Below, one piece after another: positions 40,551-50,006 of a stretch of DNA of 64,000 bases. Both the position numbers and the translations under genes were made by a program. The DNA lies in contig CAJSYZ010000002.1 in NCBI GenBank assembly GCA_910574455.1, forward strand, positions 1,947,671-2,011,670, in the 5' to 3' direction. Numbering within the stretch: position 1 is the stretch's first letter; every line of letters starts with the position of its first letter. The stretch is from Trichaptum fuscoviolaceum (lineage: Eukaryota; Basidiomycota; Agaricomycetes; Hymenochaetales; Trichaptaceae). The notes beneath the pieces were generated by a model. That model had not been told where the DNA came from. It saw only the letters and a program-made list of their open reading frames with translations, and did no database searches.

Positions 40551-42248
40551 ATGTCATTCTTTTGTGGTATCTCTGGTGAACCGCCGCAGGACCCGGTTGT
40601 CTCTACGAAAAGTGGACATGTTTACGAGCGCCGTCTCATCACAAAATATATCACGGACAATGGAACAGACCCAATTACGGGCGAAAAGCTTGAGGAGTCA
40701 GACTTGGTTTCCGTGAAAGCTAGTAAGTGTCTGTTTTTTAACTGTGCTCCCATTTACACTGCTATACCAATCCTTTCTTCGCTATAAATTGGCTTTTCTA
40801 CATGTCCCGCAACTAATCGCTCCAATATTTACCCTTCAGGTCCAAAAACCGCGCCTCCTAGACCTCCTACCCTTACGTCTATACCAGCCCTCCTTCACAC
40901 CCTGCAAAATGAATGGGACGCGCTTGTACTTGAGACTTTCGCGCTAAAGCAACAATACAACTCCGTGCGCCAACAACTATCGCATGCACTTTACCAACAG
41001 GACGCTGCGACGCGCGTCATTGCTCGCTTGATCAAGGAGAGGGATGCCTCTAGAGAGTGAGTTGTGATCCAGCTGTTGTATGTTATGCGCATCTAACATG
41101 CTTGAAAAAGGGCTCTCGCTAATGTCCAGGCGACAATTGGCATCACGCCAGCGGCTGCATCGGGAAGCGGGGACGTTGAGATGGGCGAACAGGCCGTTGA
41201 GGAAGCCCCTGGCCTACCGAAAGAGATTGTTGCGCAGATCGACGAGACAAACGCTGCTCTTTCCGCGACACGTCGCAAGAGAAAACCAGCGCCCGATCAT
41301 GCAACACCTGCTCAGGTCAAAAAGTTCACAGCGACGCACACTATCCCTTCTTTACACTCAGCGTCCCCCGCTGGCATCAACTCGCTGGCCTTGTCGAATG
41401 CTCAACAGGGTCTTTTCGCAACGGGTGGGAATGATAAAATCGTGCAGCTTTATGATCGTAATGCAGACAAAGTCGTCGCAACGCTCAAGGGGCACACGAA
41501 AAAGGTGAACCATGTTGCGCTCCGGGAGAGAGACGGTTCCCCAACGCTAGTATTGTCGGCAAGTGCAGACAAGTCTGCGCGCGTATGGGCGCATGATGAG
41601 GCTTCAGGCGAATATGCCCCTCGTCAAACTATCAAAATCCACAAGGGTGATGTTACGGGCCTCTTCGTTCACCCGACCCAGACACTTTTGGGTCTCGCCT
41701 CGTTGGACAAGACGTATTCTATACATGATCTGTCAAACTTCACAGCCGTATTCCAAAGTGCCGCTGGCGAGGATGCGTATACGGCTGCAGGTGTCCACCC
41801 CGACGGCACACTTTTAGCATTGGGTACACCTGGGTCTACCGTCCAAATCTTCGACATCCGATCTGGAGCGCTCGCCGCAACACTCACGCCTGAGGACGGC
41901 ACTCCTTTTACCGTCAACACACTTGCGTTCTCCGAAAACGGCTATCACCTCATCGCACCAGACTCTACATCATCTGTCGCAATCTGGGATTTGCGCAAGC
42001 AGGCGCGTGCGCACTCAATCAGCCTCGGAGATAATTTCAAGATCAACAAGGTTGTCTACGACTACTCTGCGCAGTTCTTCGGTGTCGCAGGCAACGAAGG
42101 AGGCCGCGCCTATGCTCACAAGACCTGGGAAGAACTTGTGCGGTTCGAGGAAGGCGGCGAAATTTCTGCTTTGGCGTTCGGACACCTTGGCAAGGAGGTG
42201 TGGGGAGTTACTGGTCGTGAGGTTAGGATTTGGGGACTACCTCAGTAA
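40551..42248 (+). CDS. PRP19: PRP19, spliceosomal U-box E3 ubiquitin ligase
   Basis: Core of the Prp19/NTC complex needed for spliceosome activation, and a ubiquitin ligase. Exon 1 encodes the U-box ([42 protein letters not shown]). After an intron near 40722-40840 comes the Prp19 coiled-coil segment ([40 protein letters not shown]), which tetramerises. After a further short intron (about 41057-41109) a linker follows with [13 protein letters not shown] basic residues, then a C-terminal WD40 propeller ([63 protein letters not shown], ending VRIWGLPQ). Length of about 500 residues is normal for the family. The ATG at 40551 directly opens the conserved N terminus. Confidence 0.96.
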
Positions 42249-42471
42249 AATCTTGATATTTGTGCATAATCTTTACCTCTATACTTTTGTCCACTGTACT
42301 CCTTCGCTATCTTATACATACTGCGGTTTTTGTGCAAGCAGAAGAGAGAAAAGAAAATGCGGCGGGCCTGGGAATTGCCGATAACGAATAGAACTCCGAT
42401 CGCACCCGAGAAATAACACTTTCAACGTCTTCGACGACAGCAAGGCGCAGAGGTTCATCCCACCGTACACA

Positions 42472-43210
42472 ATGTTGGCGTCGACCGCCCGCTCTTTCTC
42501 TGCCGCTGCAGGTAGCTCTGCCGGACGGCGCTACGCGTCCACAATCGCGCTTAAATATTCCAACGCTGCGTTCAAGGCGGCGGTATCGAAGTCGCCCCAG
42601 ACTCTCACCAAAGTGCACAGCGAATTATCCTCGATCTCGAAGACCATCAAGGACACGCCCGAATTTGCGTCTTTCATCTCGAACCCGCTCATTCCTGCGA
42701 AGGACCGTGCGACTGGACTGGAAACGCTGTACAAGACGGCACAGAAGGGCGCGAAGGAACCCATTAGTGACATCACTAAGAGCCTCTTCAGTGTCCTGTC
42801 GGAGAATGGCCGACTCGCAGAGGCTCCCGGTGTAATTGAGGGCTTCAACGAGCTTGTCTCGAAGTACAGGGGCGAACTAGATATTGTGGTCACGTCTGCT
42901 GCTCCTCTGCCAAAGGATGTCCTTACCAAATTGGAGACAACCTTGAAGCAGTCCGAGGCAGGGAAACAGGCAAAGACATTGAAGCTTGTAAACAAAGTAT
43001 GTGACGTATGCTTACATTGTTGTATCATGCTCATTCATCTGTGTAGGTAAACCCGTCTATCCTTGGTGGTATCATGGTGGATGTCGGCGACAAAACTATT
43101 GATCTCAGCGTATCAGCGAGGGTTAACAAGCTCAACTCTCTTCTACAACGTAAGCGTTATATTCAACTTCTAAATCCTGTGTCTGACATACATTTTCAGA
43201 ATCCGTGTAA
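42472..43210 (+). CDS. ATP5: Mitochondrial ATP synthase subunit 5 (OSCP)
   Basis: OSCP joins the F1 head to the peripheral stalk of ATP synthase. The first about 25 residues (MLASTARSFSAAAGSSAGRR YAST) are a mitochondrial presequence, rich in Arg, Ser and Ala with no acids. The body has FKAAVSKSPQTLTKVHSELS, PLIPAKDRATGLETL, NGRLAEAPGVIEGFNELVSK and the conserved end VNPSILGGIMVDVGDKTIDLS followed by VSARVNKLNSLLQQSV. Introns are at 42997-43046 and 43150-43199; the last exon has only a few codons (Gln completed across the junction, Ser, Val, stop at 43208-43210). Length of about 210 residues fits. Confidence 0.95.
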
Positions 43211-43581: not shown

Positions 43582-46500
43582 TCAAGTGAAAAGACGGCCC
43601 ACGCATTTGCGAGCCCCACATTCACATTTGCGATACAAGGCGCCCTTCTTCTCGGTGGCAGGTGGGCCCTAGAGATGCGCCATAAACATACTGACATGAA
43701 ACAATGGATGTCGCTTACAGTGTTCTCATCCACATCATCCAAGTCTCCGATATATGAGAAACATAGCTCTTCTCCAGCGTCAATATCTCTGATGGTGAAA
43801 ATTGCAAGAAGAGGCTTTAGTATGTTCGATTCGTTGATGTAAACCGCATTAATCCTGCAGTTAGGATCGCAGCTGTGATTCTGAATAAATAATTAGTTAT
43901 GGATGAATTCGTTTCAACAAGGGTTGTAGAGTCACTGACCAAGAAACGCGTAAACTGTGAGGAAAAAGTTATGTAAACATCTTGTAAATGTTCCCGGTCC
44001 ACGAGATTATAAAGCTCACATTTCCAGCGTGAAAGGCATCAATAGTATATTCTACAACATCGTCATCATCGTCATTTATCGTTTGCTTGATGTGCCAAAA
44101 GTCAATGTCAAACAGATATGTGCGTCCGACATTGTTATAAATGCTTTGGCAATCTTTAGTTCAGAAGACCGAACATGACGAGGATAGGATACCCTTACCG
44201 TCCACGGCGTTCACCCTCGTCGTCAGTGATGATTTCACCAGAATAAATTCCAACAAACGTCCCAGAGGGAATCTTCCGGCCAGCAAATATACCTGTCATG
44301 TATGATTATGCATAGTAAGAACGAGAAGATGCAGAGTCCATGGGGAAAACAAACCCCAGCCTTTGGTCTCCGTTTTGACGATGTTTACGGAGCATTTTCG
44401 TCCGGCCTGCACAACCTATTTCTCACAGACTTCAGTATTGATGTTCAGCTCAGAGCAAAACACTTACGCGATTCCAACAATCTTCGGTGCATCCACACAA
44501 TTCGTTACACTCATAGATAGGGTAGTTTTGGAGTCGAAGACGGCCCCTCGCGTCGTACAGGAAGCCTTTCTTGATTCCAGCGTCCTCGCAAGTCTTCTGC
44601 GCTTGCTGCAGACAGCTACACTTTCGGTTCTTTGGATCGCATTTACCTATGCAATCGCATCCCTTCAGCTTGCTGGTCTCTGGGGGCGGAACGTTATCCC
44701 CATGCCACATAAGGTTAGTGTAATAGAATTCGGAAGGCGGTATTATATCGTCATCGAAATCATTGATGACCTTGATATACGGGGCGTCCGGCTCTTCGAA
44801 GGTAGTGCTCGACATTATTGCGCTCTCGAATGCCTGTCTGATGACACCAGGATACAACGAGCACTCCCATTTTGGCATGCCGTTTAGCACGTCAGCCAGG
44901 TTGTGAGGTAAATCTTTCGCCTGAAAATAGGTAGAAACAGAAGCAAATTCTCGACCAAATGATTCAGGGAGGGCCTCGGGTGCTTGGTTTACAAGCAAGC
45001 CCACATCAACGCCATTAGTCACGCTGTCCAAAAGATCTATATCATCTGCAGTATCCGTCGACGAAGTTCGTGAATGTGAACGGGCTGAAGACCGGACAGG
45101 GACATTTGCGCGTGATGAATGAGATGTTAACCGCTCTCTAAGACGCTTGTTTGCCTTGCGTGAAGAAGCAGTGACTATAGTATCGCCGACTCCCCCCGGT
45201 TCATGCCCACTTTCAGAGGACGAGCGTTGCCGTTTGCGAAGCACAAGTGGGGAAACTGGAGCTAGGGCATTCGACACAGATACGTGTTCTGTTGGGGTAA
45301 GGTTGCGAGCTGGTACGAGATCTTTATCAACGACGCGGTTTAATTGAGATCCAAAAGAAGATGCAATCGTCGGATGCGCATTGTCAGTCTCAGAGGTAGG
45401 TGGGTTGCTCGTTCTGTTGAGTTCTGAGGTAGGCAAGGGTCTATCACCTTGAATAGGCTGGTCTAAACTCTCCACAGATGAGCGACGAGATTCTACACTG
45501 TCTGTCTCGCGACCCCGCTTAGCGAATTCCGAGCGTATCTGTCGAATGGTGCGGAGATCCCCTGTCGAGGTCGTTGAAGCTGAAGACGCCGACCCGCTTC
45601 GCGGGCGCTCTGATGTTAAGAACGTTGGTTTCCCCCCCAGTACAGATTCTATTAATGAATAAGTTCAGATGACCCGCTAATCTATCGCGCTGAAAACCGT
45701 CACCTTTCCCTTTCGTACTTAGTACAGATATTTGAGACCTGAGCGACGAAGTACCCGGTTGTCCACGAAGTGAGGACGTAGACGCCTTGCTCAATCCCGA
45801 AGTTGAATTTGCATGCAACAAACTGGCTTTATTGACTGCGTTCATGAGCAGTGAGCTTTTAATCTTTCGGACAGGCTTTGGTTCTTCGATTAAAGCATTA
45901 ACGGATTTGATCAGATGGGACTGAGGTGATGCAGAAAGATCCTCCCTTGGTGACTTTGCTCGCAGAATTGTAGGTATCCTCGACGCAGTGGCAGGAGAAG
46001 GTCCGACTTGCGAAACATCGGAAGTCTGCTCAGGGGATTGAAGTCGATCTGAAGTTTGTGAGACAGTAGCAAGTGTATGTTGTCCGCTGGGTGACAAAGG
46101 AGGCCGAGTCGACGTTTTTGCTGGTAGAGGGAGCTGTTCGTTCGGCAAAGTTTCCGGGGAGTGAATTGTTGGAGGAACATCATTAAACACATTCCTCGAA
46201 GGCAGTGCAGATGTCGATGAGTTTACAGATTCTATCTGTTCGCTTGGGGATGGCCTAGATTGCGAAGGGCGAGATGCTTCTACTGAAGGCAAGTGCGACT
46301 TCGGTAATGTTGAGCCAGATAGCGTAGATACATCGGTTTCTCGTCCAATACTTGTCTGTTCTTCTCGCACACCTTGCACCGGCAACACAGATAGTTGTTC
46401 CGTCTGAAAGGTAGGAAGGACACTGTGTGATAGCAAATCAGCACCCAGCGTCTTCAGTGCCGAGTGTTCATCGGTAGGTTCAGTGGTTTGGGGAGTTCCA

Positions 46501-49500
46501 CTTCCAGATGCGGATGATAGATCTAGTCTCTCCAATTGTGTAGTCAGAACAGGGGGTGTTCCGTCTAAGCCTGCAGTTGGATGATCACTGAAGTCCACTT
46601 CTGCACCTTCGTTCAAAAGAGCCTGGTCTAAGTCACCGTCGGATGACAGAAGAGACTGTCGTGAAGGAGACCTGCTTGAGAAAAGTAAGGCATCTACTTC
46701 CTCATCCTCGCCATCAGCGGACGTGGTATCAACATGCATTTTATCTGAGGCCTCCACAAATTCTGCTCCGATGACAGGCTGTTGGACTTCGGTGTCCACT
46801 TTAGCTAAAACTCATTATCATGAGATTGTTGTGGTTTGAACTCTCAAGGTACTTACAAGTAGTTTGCTCTGAGATCTGTTTTCCATGCATGAATCCGTTA
46901 GTGCTTGCAACTGTTGAAGCCTTGTTGTCAATGTCCTTTTCAAGATGAACTTCTGAAATTGCGAGTTCGATTTCTGGAATCGCATCGTTTTGAGGCATGG
47001 GATCGTCATTCATGTCCACATCCATAGCTGCATAATCAGCTTCATGATCATTGATGTCGAACGGGTCAGCAGATGCGGTCGATGGTGCCGGAGTAACGAC
47101 CTCAGCATTCACTGTGTTTATGACGGTACTTGGTTGACTGGCTGTCAAATCAAAAGAATGGCTCCCGCTACCTGCCGTTTGCTGAATAGCGACTGGTAAT
47201 GCCAGCGACCTCGGTAGGTCAAGGTCTGGTTGCTGTTCCTCGATGCTAGCGAGCCTAAGAAATTCATTACTGGCATCCGATAAATTGTGCGAGTGGCCGA
47301 GGATTTGCGAAGGACGAGGCTTCTCCGTGGACTTTCGCACCATTTGAGGACTGGAAGGTAAAGTGGGCGTAGGAGGCGATCGAAGCTGTCCAGTGGATTT
47401 TCGCGCTGTTTGGCGAGGACTGCGAGGATTGTCTGGGGGCCCCGGCTCACCAGGCCCGGGAGAAGTACCGGACTGTCCTGTTGTTTTGCGTGCTGTTTGA
47501 GGAGTAGAGTCCGGTACAGTCCCCACAGATTTTGGAGGTGATTCTCCGGTTGGTTTTCGCGCCTTTTGGGGATTAAGCGCTGAATCAGATCCAGCAGGTT
47601 TGCGGGGAGCGAGCACATTTCCCGTTGATTTTCGTGCCGTCTGACGAGGCCGACGAGGGCTGGGATCGTCGTCCGAACTAATTTCGATCACCGCTTGCCC
47701 TGATCCCGAGCTTTTCTGACTATCGTGTGCCTGCGTTAGAGGTGTTGAACCCGATGTTCCAGTCGATTTATTAGGCATCTGTGTCCTAGGAGGGGAACCG
47801 GGAGGAGAATCCAATGTAAGATCAATCGTTTGCGGTGGTCCCCGGTGCACTTGCTTTCCTTTGTTTTTCCGAAAAAAACCTGCTTTCCATTTCTCCAATC
47901 TTTGTTTTTCAGTCTCTTCGTCTTCTGGGCCGGAGAGGTCGACGACCACGGACTCAGAGTTCTTTGATGCTACAAGGGCAATATCCGAACAGTTTAGACT
48001 CAAAGCGTTCGTCCTGCATGGTAAGCACTCACATGAGCTGGGTCGAGATGCTGGTAGAGGTGCACTTATACTCCCAGTTAGGGTACTCGAACCTGGCCTG
48101 AGACGTGCAGGTTGAGTCGAAGGGAGAGACCTGGAAGCTATAGTGCTGATACATCAGTAGGTGGCGCACACCATTGAAAGACTGCGCGCACCAGATATGG
48201 ACTTAGTAGACGTCGACTTTCCGGATTGATTGCCTTCCGTACGATGTTGAGGCAGGCCTATACAGCAGAATAATGTGATTTGGGGCGCATCTGAGATACT
48301 GATATCACGTACGTTTCGGAATTTTAGGCAAGTTTTCGACTGGCTTCTTGGCAGTACGACTAGCTTGACTCATGGTTGAGAATTGCTTTGCGTCTGGAAA
48401 GTCTTCAGAATCACTGCTGTTCAATGCTGCTTTTCTGGAGCGAGCGTTCTAAAAGGCGAATTGCAGGTGCCTCAGTAAGAAGAGCCTTCAAGACCAATAG
48501 GAGAGCTCACGCTTGAGTCTGCGCCGTTTATGAAGCCAGGTATCTGAGGAATACCAATTAAGAGTGAAGCCCCTAGAGCATTTCAGTACAAATGACTCAC
48601 AACGGGAGGCAGCGCCGAAGACGATAATGATGCAGAAGCATTTCCAGAAGCTCTAGACGAGAAGCCAAACGATCCGGGTGTAGCTTTGCCCTTTCCCTTT
48701 CCAAAAGCATTGTCGTAGCTCTGCAAAGTTGCCCATGCCGTCCGATTTACTGGGATCTTATTGTTGGAGCTCTGTATAGTTGCCGGTCCCGCTCGAGGTA
48801 TAATGCCGGAGCTTTTACGCGCAGTCTGGTATGTATGGCGTTCAGAGGGCGAGTCGGACATCAGGCTAATTGAGTATCACCTGTTTCATTGCATACGGCT
48901 TGGCTGAGGTTGAGGAGCCTCCGCCCGACGCGTCAGGCACGGAGGGTGCATATGTCGTCGACGCGACTTTTGAGCTCGAAGATGCACTAGTACTCGCCTT
49001 TGCAAACTGAGAAGCACTAAGTGCAGGAGGAGGCATATTTCTTGAGTTTATTTGTGGCGCTGTACGCACTGTTAGGTTGATCGATACCTGGAGGTCGCCT
49101 ACTAGATTGCTTACCCCGCTGAGAGTTCTCAATCGCATTGACGGTGGCATTGTGGGTGTTGGCTAACACTGCGGCTGGCGAAGACGCGCTCGAAGAGGTA
49201 CCTTGGGTCGTCGGACGGAAAGAGGCCATGTCGAAACGGCTTACGATTGTCGGTCTTGCTCCTATACGGTCTTGTACAGAACCCGTCCCCTTGTTCTTTG
49301 TTAGAGCACCTCTCGATGCTGGTCCGGGCGGAACGGAAGACCTATCTAGCATATCATTCTCGTTCTCCTCTTCGGATTCCGAGTCGGATGCTGGTGCTAC
49401 ACGAAGCAAATCAGTACTCGCTCGTCTCAATATTATGAAGGGTATAGTTACTGGTCAATGCAGTCCACCCAGGCCCGGGTGAAGGAGCCGATCTTTGAGA

Positions 49501-50006
49501 TGGCCGTTGATCAAAACCTTGCATTAATTAGCTCTAATCTTGAGATAATACGGAACAGTGATTGCAGCGAGTACGATGGCTCGTCTTTAGCCTGACATTG
49601 CCGACTGCGCGATGGTAGGCGTAGATGCCTTGAGTTCGACGCGTTCATTCGTCGCCAAACACGAGACGCGATGTTCCCACGTACATTTCTCGATCAAGCC
49701 TTCAAGTTTAACAATTAACCAACGATCCCAACGGCGCCAACTCGCAGTCCTATTCGTACATGATCTAGACGGCGTTGCGTAGACTTGTCGTTTACGCTCT
49801 GAACTCAACTGGAAACGAGATAAAGGCCGTCCATCTTTTCATTGGGAACAACGAGACCCACTATTACAGTATGGCCAACACAGGCGATATATTCAGCAAA
49901 CTCTTCAAATGCGACCTGGATGATTTCACGCTGTGCGCCGTCGATGTTGCAGAGCAGACTCACTTGAAGCCTCGGACTCGCGAGTTATCGACGGAGTACC
50001 AGGCAT
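43582..50006 (-). CDS. clr4: SUV39/Clr4-type histone H3K9 methyltransferase with long N terminus
   Basis: Predicted nuclear heterochromatin enzyme that methylates H3 lysine 9. The C-terminal third is complete. Pre-SET cysteines run from GCDCIGKCDPKNRKCSCLQQ to YECNELCGCTEDCWNRV. The SET domain has KGWGLFAGRKIPSGTFVGIY, SGEIITDDEG, FLNHSCDPNC (split by an intron) and GEELCFSYIGD. The post-SET is YRKCECGARKC, with the stop at 43582-43584. Upstream, open frames join through canonical short introns (45649-45703, 46805-46856, 48826-48880 and others) into an about 1,700-residue product, far longer than Clr4 or DIM-5. The N-terminal half is disordered and Ser/Pro-rich, with H3-tail-like repeats and SUMO-interaction-like motifs. 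Exon 1 (MPGTPSITRESEAS, ATG at 50004-50006) is the least certain part; an intron of about 165 nt would follow it. Confidence 0.87.
47323..48825 (-). repeat. H3K9-tail mimic array inside the methyltransferase
   Basis: Protein-level repeats resembling H3 residues 4-12 (KQTARKSTG). Clear copies are RQTARKSTG (47620-47646, followed by NVLAPRK, recalling H3 GKAPRK), QKARKPTG (47545-47568), QTARKTTG (47476-47499), RQTARKSTG (47389-47415) and QMVRKSTE (47323-47346). A weaker one is QMPNKSTG (47758-47781). One more lies in an earlier exon: KQ|TARKSSG, whose K and Q codons end the exon at 48881 and whose rest starts at 48825. The central lysines of the main array are about 22-29 residues apart. Codons differ between copies at nearly every position except Lys (AAA or AAG), so conservation is at the protein level. 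Confidence 0.85.
47665..47949 (-). other. Three SUMO-interaction-like motifs before the mimic array
   Basis: Three short hydrophobic-acidic motifs of the SIM type lie within about 95 residues: VVVDLSGPEDEE (47914-47949), TIDLTLDS (47806-47829) and VIEISSDDD (47665-47691). Each has a V/I/L core followed or interrupted by Asp/Glu and Ser, as in known SUMO-binding peptides. They directly precede the first full H3-like repeat. Confidence 0.6.
49590..49795 (-). other. Chromodomain-like segment near the methyltransferase N terminus
   Basis: The second exon reads SWRRWDRWLIVKLEG, then LIEKCTWEHRVSCLATN. This recalls the chromodomain core (YLVKWKGY...TWEPEENL), with Leu in place of the usual Trp of KWKG and a shorter loop. 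Clr4 and SUV39H1 carry an N-terminal chromodomain, so the position fits. The match is partial and may be a divergent module. Confidence 0.35.

What the first reader, a model, noticed from the sequence alone, without database searches (positions are those of the whole stretch)
47323..48883. Array of histone H3 tail mimics inside an H3K9 methyltransferase
The predicted enzyme carries at least six H3K9-like sequences in its own N-terminal half: RQTARKSTG twice, QTARKTTG, QKARKPTG, QMVRKSTE and KQTARKSSG, plus weaker QMPNKSTG. Each puts a lysine in the place of H3K9. One copy continues as QTARKSTGNVLAPRK, recalling H3 QTARKSTGGKAPRK. Across the copies Arg, Gln, Thr and Ala codons are nearly all different while residues are kept, so selection on the peptide is likely rather than recent duplication. 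Known precedent: mammalian G9a has a single H3K9-like automethylation site that binds HP1. A multi-copy array would be a multivalent automethylation scaffold for HP1/Swi6-like readers, or a tethered pseudo-substrate that tunes the enzyme. I know of no description of such an array in a fungal SUV39 enzyme.
Basis: partly seen in the sequence, partly recalled or inferred. Interest (0 to 1): 0.95.

Follow-up and report, generated by a model that had tools for sequence, protein, structure and literature searches.

The report
Fungal H3K9 methyltransferase carrying histone-tail mimics
A mushroom-relative's enzyme that marks histone H3 at lysine 9 carries several copies of the histone's own target sequence in its long disordered tail, and similar mimics recur in many related fungal enzymes, suggesting that the enzyme tags itself to recruit the silencing protein HP1.

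Summary
Observation confirmed. A minus-strand 17-exon gene (49524..43582, hand-built model) encodes a 1678-residue SUV39/Clr4-type methyltransferase, the only Pre-SET match found in its 59-Mb genome. Its disordered N-terminus holds H3K9-like peptides: KQTARKSSG (across a splice junction), RQTARKSTG twice, QTARKTTG, QKARKPTG, and the weaker QMVRKSTE and QMPNKSTG. Shuffles, scrambled peptides and a genome-wide codon search exclude chance.

ARK[ST][STAV][GR] occurs in 25 of 80 long Agaricomycete homologues; the five other orders of A, R, K give none. With column 9 masked, lysine fills 34 of 38 sites. Mimics (score >=24) are absent from 43 of 43 chromodomain-bearing SUV39 proteins; 0 of 40 scanned Agaricomycete homologues has a chromodomain.

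Best reading: the enzyme methylates its own H3-like peptides and HP1 docks there, as in G9a/GLP, in place of a chromodomain. An HP1/Swi6 gene exists in the same genome. Methylation and binding are inferred, not shown. 45 of 80 long homologues lack a site at that threshold, copies are not conserved in position, and Tetrapyrgos has a second multi-copy set. The paper searches made showed no description of this.

The parts
43582..49524 (-). Whole gene model, 17 exons, 1678 aa SUV39/Clr4-type methyltransferase: exons 49524-49452, 49396-49115, 49059-48881, 48825-48601, 48543-48511, 48448-48313, 48257-48192, 48137-48033, 47969-46857, 46804-45704, 45648-44468, 44415-44355, 44292-44199, 44143-44020, 43954-43940, 43880-43719, 43668-43582
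   Evidence: Open from ATG to stop with introns that begin GT and end AG; the first ten are 52-63 nt. Hand-built; no RNA evidence.
48805..48886 (-). Mimic 1: KQ (48886-48881) joined to TARKSSG (48825-48805) across a splice junction; aa 177-185
47758..47781 (-). Weak mimic QMPNKSTG, aa 430 (lacks A7-R8)
47620..47643 (-). Mimic 2: (R)QTARKSTG, aa 476, followed by NVLAPRK
47545..47568 (-). Mimic 3: QKARKPTG, aa 501
47476..47499 (-). Mimic 4: QTARKTTG, aa 524
47389..47412 (-). Mimic 5: (R)QTARKSTG, aa 553
47323..47346 (-). Mimic 6, weaker: QMVRKSTE, aa 575
47920..47946 (-). SIM-like VVDLSGPED, aa 375 (SUMO-interacting-motif-like; the label is recalled)
   Evidence: regular expression
47803..47829 (-). 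SIM-like TIDLTLDSP, aa 414; the same motif recurs in the homologues' disordered regions
   Evidence: 21 of 101 N-termini (window included) score >=32; 0 of 500 scrambles reach the observed mean
47665..47691 (-). SIM-like VIEISSDDD, aa 460
   Evidence: regular expression
44468..44785 (-). Pre-SET domain, aa 1393-1498
   Evidence: Pfam PF05033 E 8.5e-17; only match found in the genome
43752..44361 (-). SET domain, aa 1517-1639, spread over exons 12-16, with FTRFLNHSCDPN
   Evidence: Pfam PF00856 E 1.9e-24; Clr4 chains E 5.6e-53
43582..43668 (-). Post-SET end, CECGARKCVGRLFT
   Evidence: aligns with the Clr4 post-SET

Best explanation
The gene encodes a SUV39/Clr4-class H3K9 methyltransferase, the only one found in this genome. 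Its roughly 1300-residue disordered N-terminus carries several copies of the H3 tail around K9. The SET domain methylates these lysines in cis or in trans, and the methylated peptides are docking sites for the HP1/Swi6 chromodomain, as for G9a/GLP. This ties the writer to HP1-coated chromatin without a chromodomain of its own: HP1 reads both the histone mark and the enzyme. Several copies raise the valency for dimeric HP1. Shown here: gene structure by reading frame, non-chance mimicry, recurrence in the family, conservation of both the A7 position that HP1 needs and the S10-T11-G12 positions that SUV39-type writers need, lack of a chromodomain in the family sample, and an HP1 gene in the same genome. 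Inferred: methylation, HP1 binding, role in targeting or spreading.
For: Scrambled-peptide control: 20 of 73 homologue N-termini score >=32 to KQTARKSTGG; 1000 scrambles give mean 0.096, max 9, none reaching 20. ARK[ST][STAV][GR] is in 25 of 80 long Agaricomycete N-termini (34 sites); the 5 other orders of A,R,K and the reversed pattern give 0; K9 to R/Q/M/E/S gives 1/0/0/1/0 proteins, R8 to K 0, A7 to S/P/G/T/V 1/2/0/0/1. Leave-one-column-out on 115 Agaricomycete N-termini plus the window: K9 34/38, R8 34/40, A7 36/48, S10 31/45 (+7 T), T11 28/49, G12 30/56, G13 26/56. This fits writer preference (DIM-5 needs R8-G12 in vitro, PMC3248561; SUV39H1/2 need R8 and read S10, T11, G12 to differing degrees, PMC8303541) and reader preference (Cbx3 buries the -2 alanine in a pocket that only a methyl fits and binds G9aK185me, PMC3325965). 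Mimics (score >=24): 0 of 43 chromodomain-bearing SUV39 proteins (best 23), 2 of 10 G9a-like, 5 of 11 SETDB1-like, 35 of 80 long Agaricomycete proteins. No chromodomain in 40 of 40 scanned Agaricomycete homologues or in the window protein. HP1 gene with chromo and chromoshadow domains. In ten Lyophyllaceae and Tricholoma homologues the LPHRTARK window is the third most conserved non-overlapping window of the disordered region (0.75 against median 0.13).
Against: No methylation, binding or expression data. 45 of 80 long Agaricomycete N-termini have no site at score >=24, and the 35 include doubtful ones without an ARK core such as P0011 and P0046. Of 16 Tremellomycete proteins one reaches 24 (P0196, shuffle p 0.037) and none 28; of 4 Puccinia proteins none, although they too show no chromodomain in the Pfam columns; so mimicry is no general substitute for a chromodomain. 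Nearest relatives Phellopilus and Coniferiporia have no clear mimic. In the five-protein Marasmius set the tested mimic window is not outstanding (13% of disordered windows are at least as conserved), though the second mimic there is the seventh best window. The Lyophyllaceae alignment gives only 0.48 for the 8 columns starting at the motif, because the aligner split it (4.5% of windows are as high). Mimic presence needs at least 15 changes on the SET tree.
Confidence: 0.62

Rival explanations
1. Tethered pseudo-substrate: the mimics occupy the enzyme's own substrate groove, keep it inactive and are released by automethylation, RNA or high H3 concentration. HP1 binding is secondary.
For: Clr4's disordered region binds its catalytic domain and represses it (PMC12418378, abstract). 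The Clr4 autoregulatory-loop lysines K455 and K472 align with Leu and Ala here (my reading of the alignment; the placing of the residue numbers is counted from recalled Clr4 length), so inhibition could have moved elsewhere. S10-T11-G12 are kept, as substrate recognition by DIM-5 demands.
Against: A7 is kept in 36 of 48 sites although the text of PMC3248561 reports no significant effect of A7M on DIM-5 in vitro (its Table 2 prints a reduction, so this is not clean). K-to-M or K-to-Q versions of the core, which would make better inhibitors, do not occur in 80 proteins; the looser scan has one M among 38 sites. The mimic of Somion P0052 lies in AlphaFold pLDDT of about 40 with no sign of docking, a weak test.
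Confidence: 0.2
2. The mimics are read unmethylated by other H3-tail binders (importins, deacetylase or ubiquitin-ligase complexes) and serve import or complex assembly rather than HP1 docking.
For: The SIM-like motif conserved in the same disordered regions suggests that they act as docking platforms. One copy extends to APRK.
Against: Lysine is the most strictly kept column (34/38) and is rarely replaced by R (1 of 80); a purely basic role would tolerate R. Conservation falls off from G12-G13 onward and towards K4-Q5; positions beyond G13 were not tested.
Confidence: 0.1
3. Chance or composition: basic, Ser/Thr-rich disordered sequence throws up H3-like words.
For: The N-termini are S/T/P/R-rich, and low-scoring hits do occur in shuffles; 12 of 73 non-fungal or unclassed proteins have shuffle p<=0.05.
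Against: 0 of 1000 scrambled peptides, 0 of 3000 shuffles for the window, 0 sites for every other order of ARK in 80 proteins, and the genome-wide codon search.
Confidence: 0.02
4. Recent capture or tandem expansion of a piece of the histone H3 gene without function.
For: The five clustered copies form a diverged 28-nt direct repeat.
Against: Third codon positions match this genome's H3 genes at only 0-38% while the peptides agree. TRF finds no tandem array. Homologues keep the same three core residues.
Confidence: 0.04

Closest known systems
G9a (EHMT2) / GLP (EHMT1) automethylated histone mimics
   Same: H3K9 methyltransferase with an ARK[ST]-type peptide in its own sequence; in G9a/GLP (K185, K239; K205) it is methylated and binds HP1 (PMC9768651, passages; PMC3325965, passages)
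   Different: G9a/GLP have ankyrin repeats that read H3K9me and one or two reported sites; here the SET is Clr4/SUV39-type, no reader domain is recognised, and the resemblance extends to QTARKSTG with up to 5-7 copies
Clr4 (S. pombe) / SUV39H2 automethylation
   Same: Same SET class (best PDB match); automethylation known; disordered region regulates activity (PMC12418378, abstract)
   Different: Clr4 automethylates a loop between SET and post-SET and has a chromodomain; here the loop lysines are not conserved, the chromodomain is absent and the sites are H3-like peptides
SETDB1/eggless-type proteins with ARKST/AKKST words
   Same: 5 of 11 homologues of this type in my set carry an H3K9-like word at score >=24
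   Different: Different architecture (MBD and other Pfam domains)
Cryptococcus neoformans Clr4 homologue
   Same: Long disordered N-terminus and no recognisable domain but SET; how it works is called worth investigating (PMC10135481, passage)
   Different: None of the 16 Tremellomycete homologues scored has a mimic at score >=28, one at 24

Membership tests
SUV39/Clr4 (KMT1) H3K9 methyltransferases | Pre-SET, SET and cysteine-bearing post-SET with NHSC motif | tested here: met
   Pfam; Clr4 chains best at E 5.6e-53, then SUV39H2 and DIM-5; NHSC and CxCGxxxC read in the sequence
SUV39/Clr4 (KMT1) H3K9 methyltransferases | N-terminal chromodomain (present in SUV39H and Clr4, absent from DIM-5; PMC10135481) | tested here: not met
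   No PF00385 in the window protein or in 40 of 40 homologues scanned. Like DIM-5, this does not remove it from the SET class.
SUV39/Clr4 (KMT1) H3K9 methyltransferases | Methylates H3K9 | not testable with these tools
   Needs an enzyme assay
G9a/GLP-type self-methylating histone mimic | H3K9-like ARK[ST] peptide in the enzyme itself | tested here: met
G9a/GLP-type self-methylating histone mimic | Peptide lysine automethylated | not testable with these tools
   Needs mass spectrometry or an in vitro assay
G9a/GLP-type self-methylating histone mimic | Methylated peptide bound by an HP1 chromodomain | tested here: inconclusive
G9a/GLP (EHMT) family by descent | Ankyrin repeats and EHMT-type SET | tested here: not met
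   No ankyrin repeat; SET nearer to Clr4. It may work like, but is not, a G9a.
Clr4 autoregulatory-loop automethylation | Lysines equivalent to K455 and K472 | tested here: not met
   Align with Leu and Ala in the printed alignment (position counting partly recalled); two other lysines lie in the loop

The most novel reading that the evidence does not exclude
Inverted read-write in the Agaricomycetes: SUV39 enzymes without a chromodomain instead carry methylatable H3 tails (and SIM-like docking motifs) in a fast-evolving disordered N-terminus. The enzyme does not read H3K9me; it wears the mark itself and is recruited by HP1 and SUMO. Copy number tunes the strength, with multivalent arrays arising at least twice (window lineage and Tetrapyrgos).
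Probability: 0.5. Interest if true: 0.88.

Novelty: new variant of a known kind. Interest (0 to 1): 0.8.

Why it matters
A review of the SUV39H family says of the long disordered N-terminus of the basidiomycete Cryptococcus Clr4 homologue that its involvement in function will be interesting to investigate (PMC10135481, passage). This finding supplies a concrete, testable content for such N-termini in mushrooms: H3K9 mimics. It would show that histone-mimic automethylation, known from animal G9a/GLP, occurs in a different enzyme class, goes with absence of the chromodomain, and can be multiplied into arrays. Model mushrooms (Coprinopsis cinerea, two sites; Schizophyllum commune, two) make it testable by point mutation.

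Tried and rejected
HP1 search: PF00385 alone returned chromodomain hits that, where read, were mainly retrotransposons (and six stretches; the printout was cut, so part of it was not seen). PF01393 at the default threshold found nothing, nor did a human chromoshadow query. PF01393 at E<=10 gave the gene.

N-terminal homology: BLASTP of window residues 1-1289 against homologue N-termini gave no hit at E 0.1, so mimics cannot be matched by position between distant species.

Conservation by alignment: clear for one group (ten Lyophyllaceae and Tricholoma proteins, with the caveat that the aligner split the motif), not for the tested mimic of five Marasmius-group proteins.

AlphaFold of Somion P0052 (40-sequence alignment, mean pLDDT 50.5): residues 1-771 below 50 apart from a few short stretches (181-182, 227, 285, 324, 461-464, 664-674); blocks 181-200 around the mimic average 40-43; no evidence for docking.

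Considered and rejected: chance, H3 gene capture, annotation artefact. For the last, public homologue proteins (for example C. cinerea P0038, S. commune P0058) carry mimic and SET in one predicted protein.

Limits: group lists were made by hand from names and Pfam columns. 62 of 73 'other' proteins plus 2 Pneumocystis were put into the chromodomain, G9a or SETDB1 classes; 11 were left unclassed. Unnamed metagenome proteins were counted as Agaricomycete by their rank in the hit lists. Each protein search listed only its best 120 hits (of 130, 198 and 143). N-termini under 150 residues were dropped before scoring. Shuffle p-values have a floor of 1/301. The scrambled-peptide test used the first search's 73 fungal proteins, 4 of them Tremellomycete, and near relatives were not thinned. 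No unrelated disordered proteins of the same fungi were scored as a control.
Full report
WHAT IS THERE. The reported range lies in a minus-strand gene. Reading GT-AG introns by eye gives 17 exons from an ATG at 49524 to a stop at 43582, open throughout, 1678 residues. Pfam finds only Pre-SET (1393-1498) and SET (1517-1639). The post-SET cysteines end the protein. Against solved structures the C-terminal 345 residues match Clr4 best (E 5.6e-53), then SUV39H2 and DIM-5. In the genome that holds the window (59.1 Mb, 12 contigs) this is the only Pre-SET match (six-frame search, exon by exon). On a SET-domain tree of 64 rows the window groups with six Hymenochaetales proteins at 100/99 support, as their sister (the order name is recalled).

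THE MIMICS. The model holds KQTARKSSG (aa 177), QMPNKSTG (430), RQTARKSTG (475), QKARKPTG (501), QTARKTTG (524), RQTARKSTG (552) and QMVRKSTE (575). This fungus's own H3 tail reads MARTKQTARKSTGG (L019, L031, L032). The first mimic is assembled by splicing: KQ ends exon 3 and TARKSSG opens exon 4. Five others sit in one exon, 22-29 residues apart, in Pro/Ser/Thr-rich linkers, directly after three SIM-like acidic motifs (VVDLSGPED, TIDLTLDSP, VIEISSDDD; the SIM label is recalled).

NOT CHANCE. (a) 5 sites score >=22 against KQTARKSTGG; none of 3000 shuffles reaches 5. (b) QTARK codons occur 52 times in the genome; only 8 continue as [ST][ST]G, 4 at H3 genes and 4 here (32 of 52 read; the other 20 excluded through). 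(c) Third codon positions match those of the genome's H3 genes at 0-38% and those of the other QTARK copies at 12-50%, so recent H3 capture or recent duplication is unlikely. An old duplication remains possible, since the five clustered copies form a 28-nt direct repeat with 68-79% identity to the reference copy.

A FAMILY TRAIT. Three protein searches gave 212 proteins. In the first set, 20 of 73 fungal homologue N-termini score >=32 to the H3 peptide; 1000 scrambled peptides average 0.096 and reach at most 9. Over all sets, sites >=32 occur in 21 of 115 Agaricomycete, 0 of 16 Tremellomycete, 0 of 4 Puccinia, 0 of 2 Pneumocystis and 1 of 73 other proteins; shuffle p<=0.01 in 30 of 115, 0, 0, 0 and 4 of 73; p<=0.05 in 42, 1, 0, 0 and 12. 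Examples: Marasmius tenuissimus KQTARKSTGGMAPPR, Coprinopsis cinerea HQTARKSTGKK and LARKSTGG, Schizophyllum commune PVARKSTGGK and PVARKSAGG, Tetrapyrgos QTARKTTGG, QTVRKSTGK, SARKSTSG, YRKSTGG, TARKSSG. In 80 Agaricomycete N-termini of at least 600 residues the pattern ARK[ST][STAV][GR] occurs in 25 proteins, 34 times; the five other orders of A, R and K and the reversed pattern occur 0 times; changing K9 to R, Q, M, E or S leaves 1, 0, 0, 1 and 0 proteins; R8 to K leaves 0; A7 to S, P, G, T or V leaves 1, 2, 0, 0 and 1. Tetrapyrgos also has 5 sites >=22 (0 of 3000 shuffles), so the many-copy state is not unique to the window.

WRITER AND READER FOOTPRINTS. With each column masked in turn while sites are chosen from the other nine, the H3 residue is found at K4 9/57, Q5 12/54, T6 19/50, A7 36/48, R8 34/40, K9 34/38 (the rest A, R, S, M once each), S10 31/45 (T in 7 more), T11 28/49, G12 30/56, G13 26/56 (window included). 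DIM-5 needs R8-G12 in vitro; the text of that paper says A7M has no significant effect, though its Table 2 prints a reduction (PMC3248561, abstract and passages). SUV39H1/2 depend on R8 and read S10, T11 and G12 to differing degrees; SUV39H1 also accepts R or K at +1 and small residues at +2 (PMC8303541, passages), which fits the ARKRTGG variants seen. HP1-type chromodomains recognise ARK[ST]; Cbx3 buries the -2 alanine in a pocket for a methyl group and binds G9aK185me3 about as well as H3K9me3 (PMC3325965, passages). Keeping both A7 and S10-T11-G12 is what a peptide that must be written by SUV39 and read by HP1 would show. This is inference from sequence.

CHROMODOMAIN AND HP1. Pfam finds no chromodomain in the window protein or in 40 of 40 scanned Agaricomycete homologues. 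Mimics (score >=24) are absent from 43 of 43 chromodomain-bearing SUV39 proteins but present in 2 of 10 G9a-like and 5 of 11 SETDB1-like proteins, G9a being the family with reported automethylated mimics (PMC9768651, passages). Against a simple substitution rule: of 16 Tremellomycete proteins one reaches 24 and none 28, and the 4 Puccinia proteins have none, though neither group shows a chromodomain (Pfam columns); 45 of 80 long Agaricomycete proteins have no site at >=24, and a few of the 35 are doubtful (P0011, P0046). The same genome encodes an HP1/Swi6: 5 exons, 313 aa, C4 2654029..2652757, chromo E 1.6e-11, chromoshadow E 1.8e-15, nearest solved chain Swi6; the residues at the aromatic-cage positions (Y in EEYEIEK, W and Y in VKWKGY) are kept, by my reading from recalled HP1 structures.

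EVOLUTION. Outside the SET part the window protein has no detectable similarity to homologue N-termini (BLASTP, E 0.1). On the tree, presence of a mimic (25 of 64 rows at score >=24) needs at least 15 changes, 11 of them forced by well-supported branches (shuffled mean 20.0, 7 of 500 shuffles as low), so the trait is mildly clustered with much turnover. Among nearest relatives, Sanghuangporus has FRKSTGG and QVARKS, Fomitiporia TARKSAY, FARKSTGT and VARKTCNG, Phellinidium VARKTPG, while Phellopilus and Coniferiporia have none clear. In ten Lyophyllaceae and Tricholoma proteins LPHRTARK is the third most conserved window of the disordered region (0.75, median 0.13), though the eight columns that start at the motif score 0.48 because the aligner split it; in five Marasmius-group proteins the tested mimic is not outstanding and a second one is the seventh best window.

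MECHANISM. Most likely the enzyme methylates its own H3-like peptides and is thereby docked on HP1, with several copies giving avidity; a pseudo-substrate brake is the main rival and could coexist (Clr4's disordered region represses its catalytic domain, PMC12418378, abstract). The Clr4 loop lysines K455 and K472 align with Leu and Ala here, so that switch is not evidently kept. AlphaFold of a one-mimic homologue (P0052) leaves the N-terminus disordered and gives no sign of docking. A second conserved element, SIM-like VIDLTLDSD (21 of 101 N-termini >=32; 500 scrambles mean 0.1, max 8), suggests that these N-termini are general docking platforms.

LITERATURE. Searches of the open-licence PMC library showed no paper describing H3 mimics in fungal SUV39 enzymes; only the top 10-25 rows of each listing were seen, and subscription journals and most preprints are not held. 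A review notes that the C. neoformans Clr4 homologue has about 1,400 disordered residues before SET and that their role will be interesting to investigate (PMC10135481, passage).

VERDICT. Observation real; interpretation partly supported and widened. New variant of a known kind: G9a-like histone mimicry in chromodomain-less SUV39 enzymes, multiplied here into an array.

Noticed in passing
G000:C3 about 2545285-2545506 (locus L075): A CENP-A-like histone (48% to H3 over the matched part) keeps an H3K9-like tail, RQKATARKSTGSR, so the same enzyme might also act on the centromeric histone. The CENP-A label is my reading, not a family search.
   Followed up: partly
window 47665-47946 and N-termini of homologues: SIM-like motif (IDLTLDSD type) conserved in the disordered regions of Agaricomycete SUV39 enzymes: 21 of 101 N-termini score >=32, scrambles mean 0.1.
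   Followed up: partly
G000:C4:2654029-2652757 (minus): HP1/Swi6 gene of the same fungus, 5 exons, with chromo and chromoshadow domains.
   Followed up: yes
P0045, residues 123-284 and 965: Tetrapyrgos nigripes SUV39 homologue carries a second, apparently independent set of 5-6 H3K9-like peptides.
   Followed up: partly
P0016/P0059 and P0028/P0052: Hohenbuehelia and Somion each have two SUV39 homologues; in each pair the one on the longer branch carries the mimic at score >=24.
   Followed up: no
P0111, P0116, P0208, P0211, P0109: SETDB1-type proteins with ARKST/AKKST words before the matched SET part, a possible parallel.
   Followed up: no
window 41106-42245 (+) and 42385-43047 (+): Beyond the 3' end of the gene lie a Prp19 WD40 ORF and an ATP synthase OSCP ORF.
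   Followed up: no
genome G000: 150 scored chromodomain hits of 521 candidates, those read being mainly in LTR retrotransposons: a transposon-rich genome with a single Pre-SET match.
   Followed up: no
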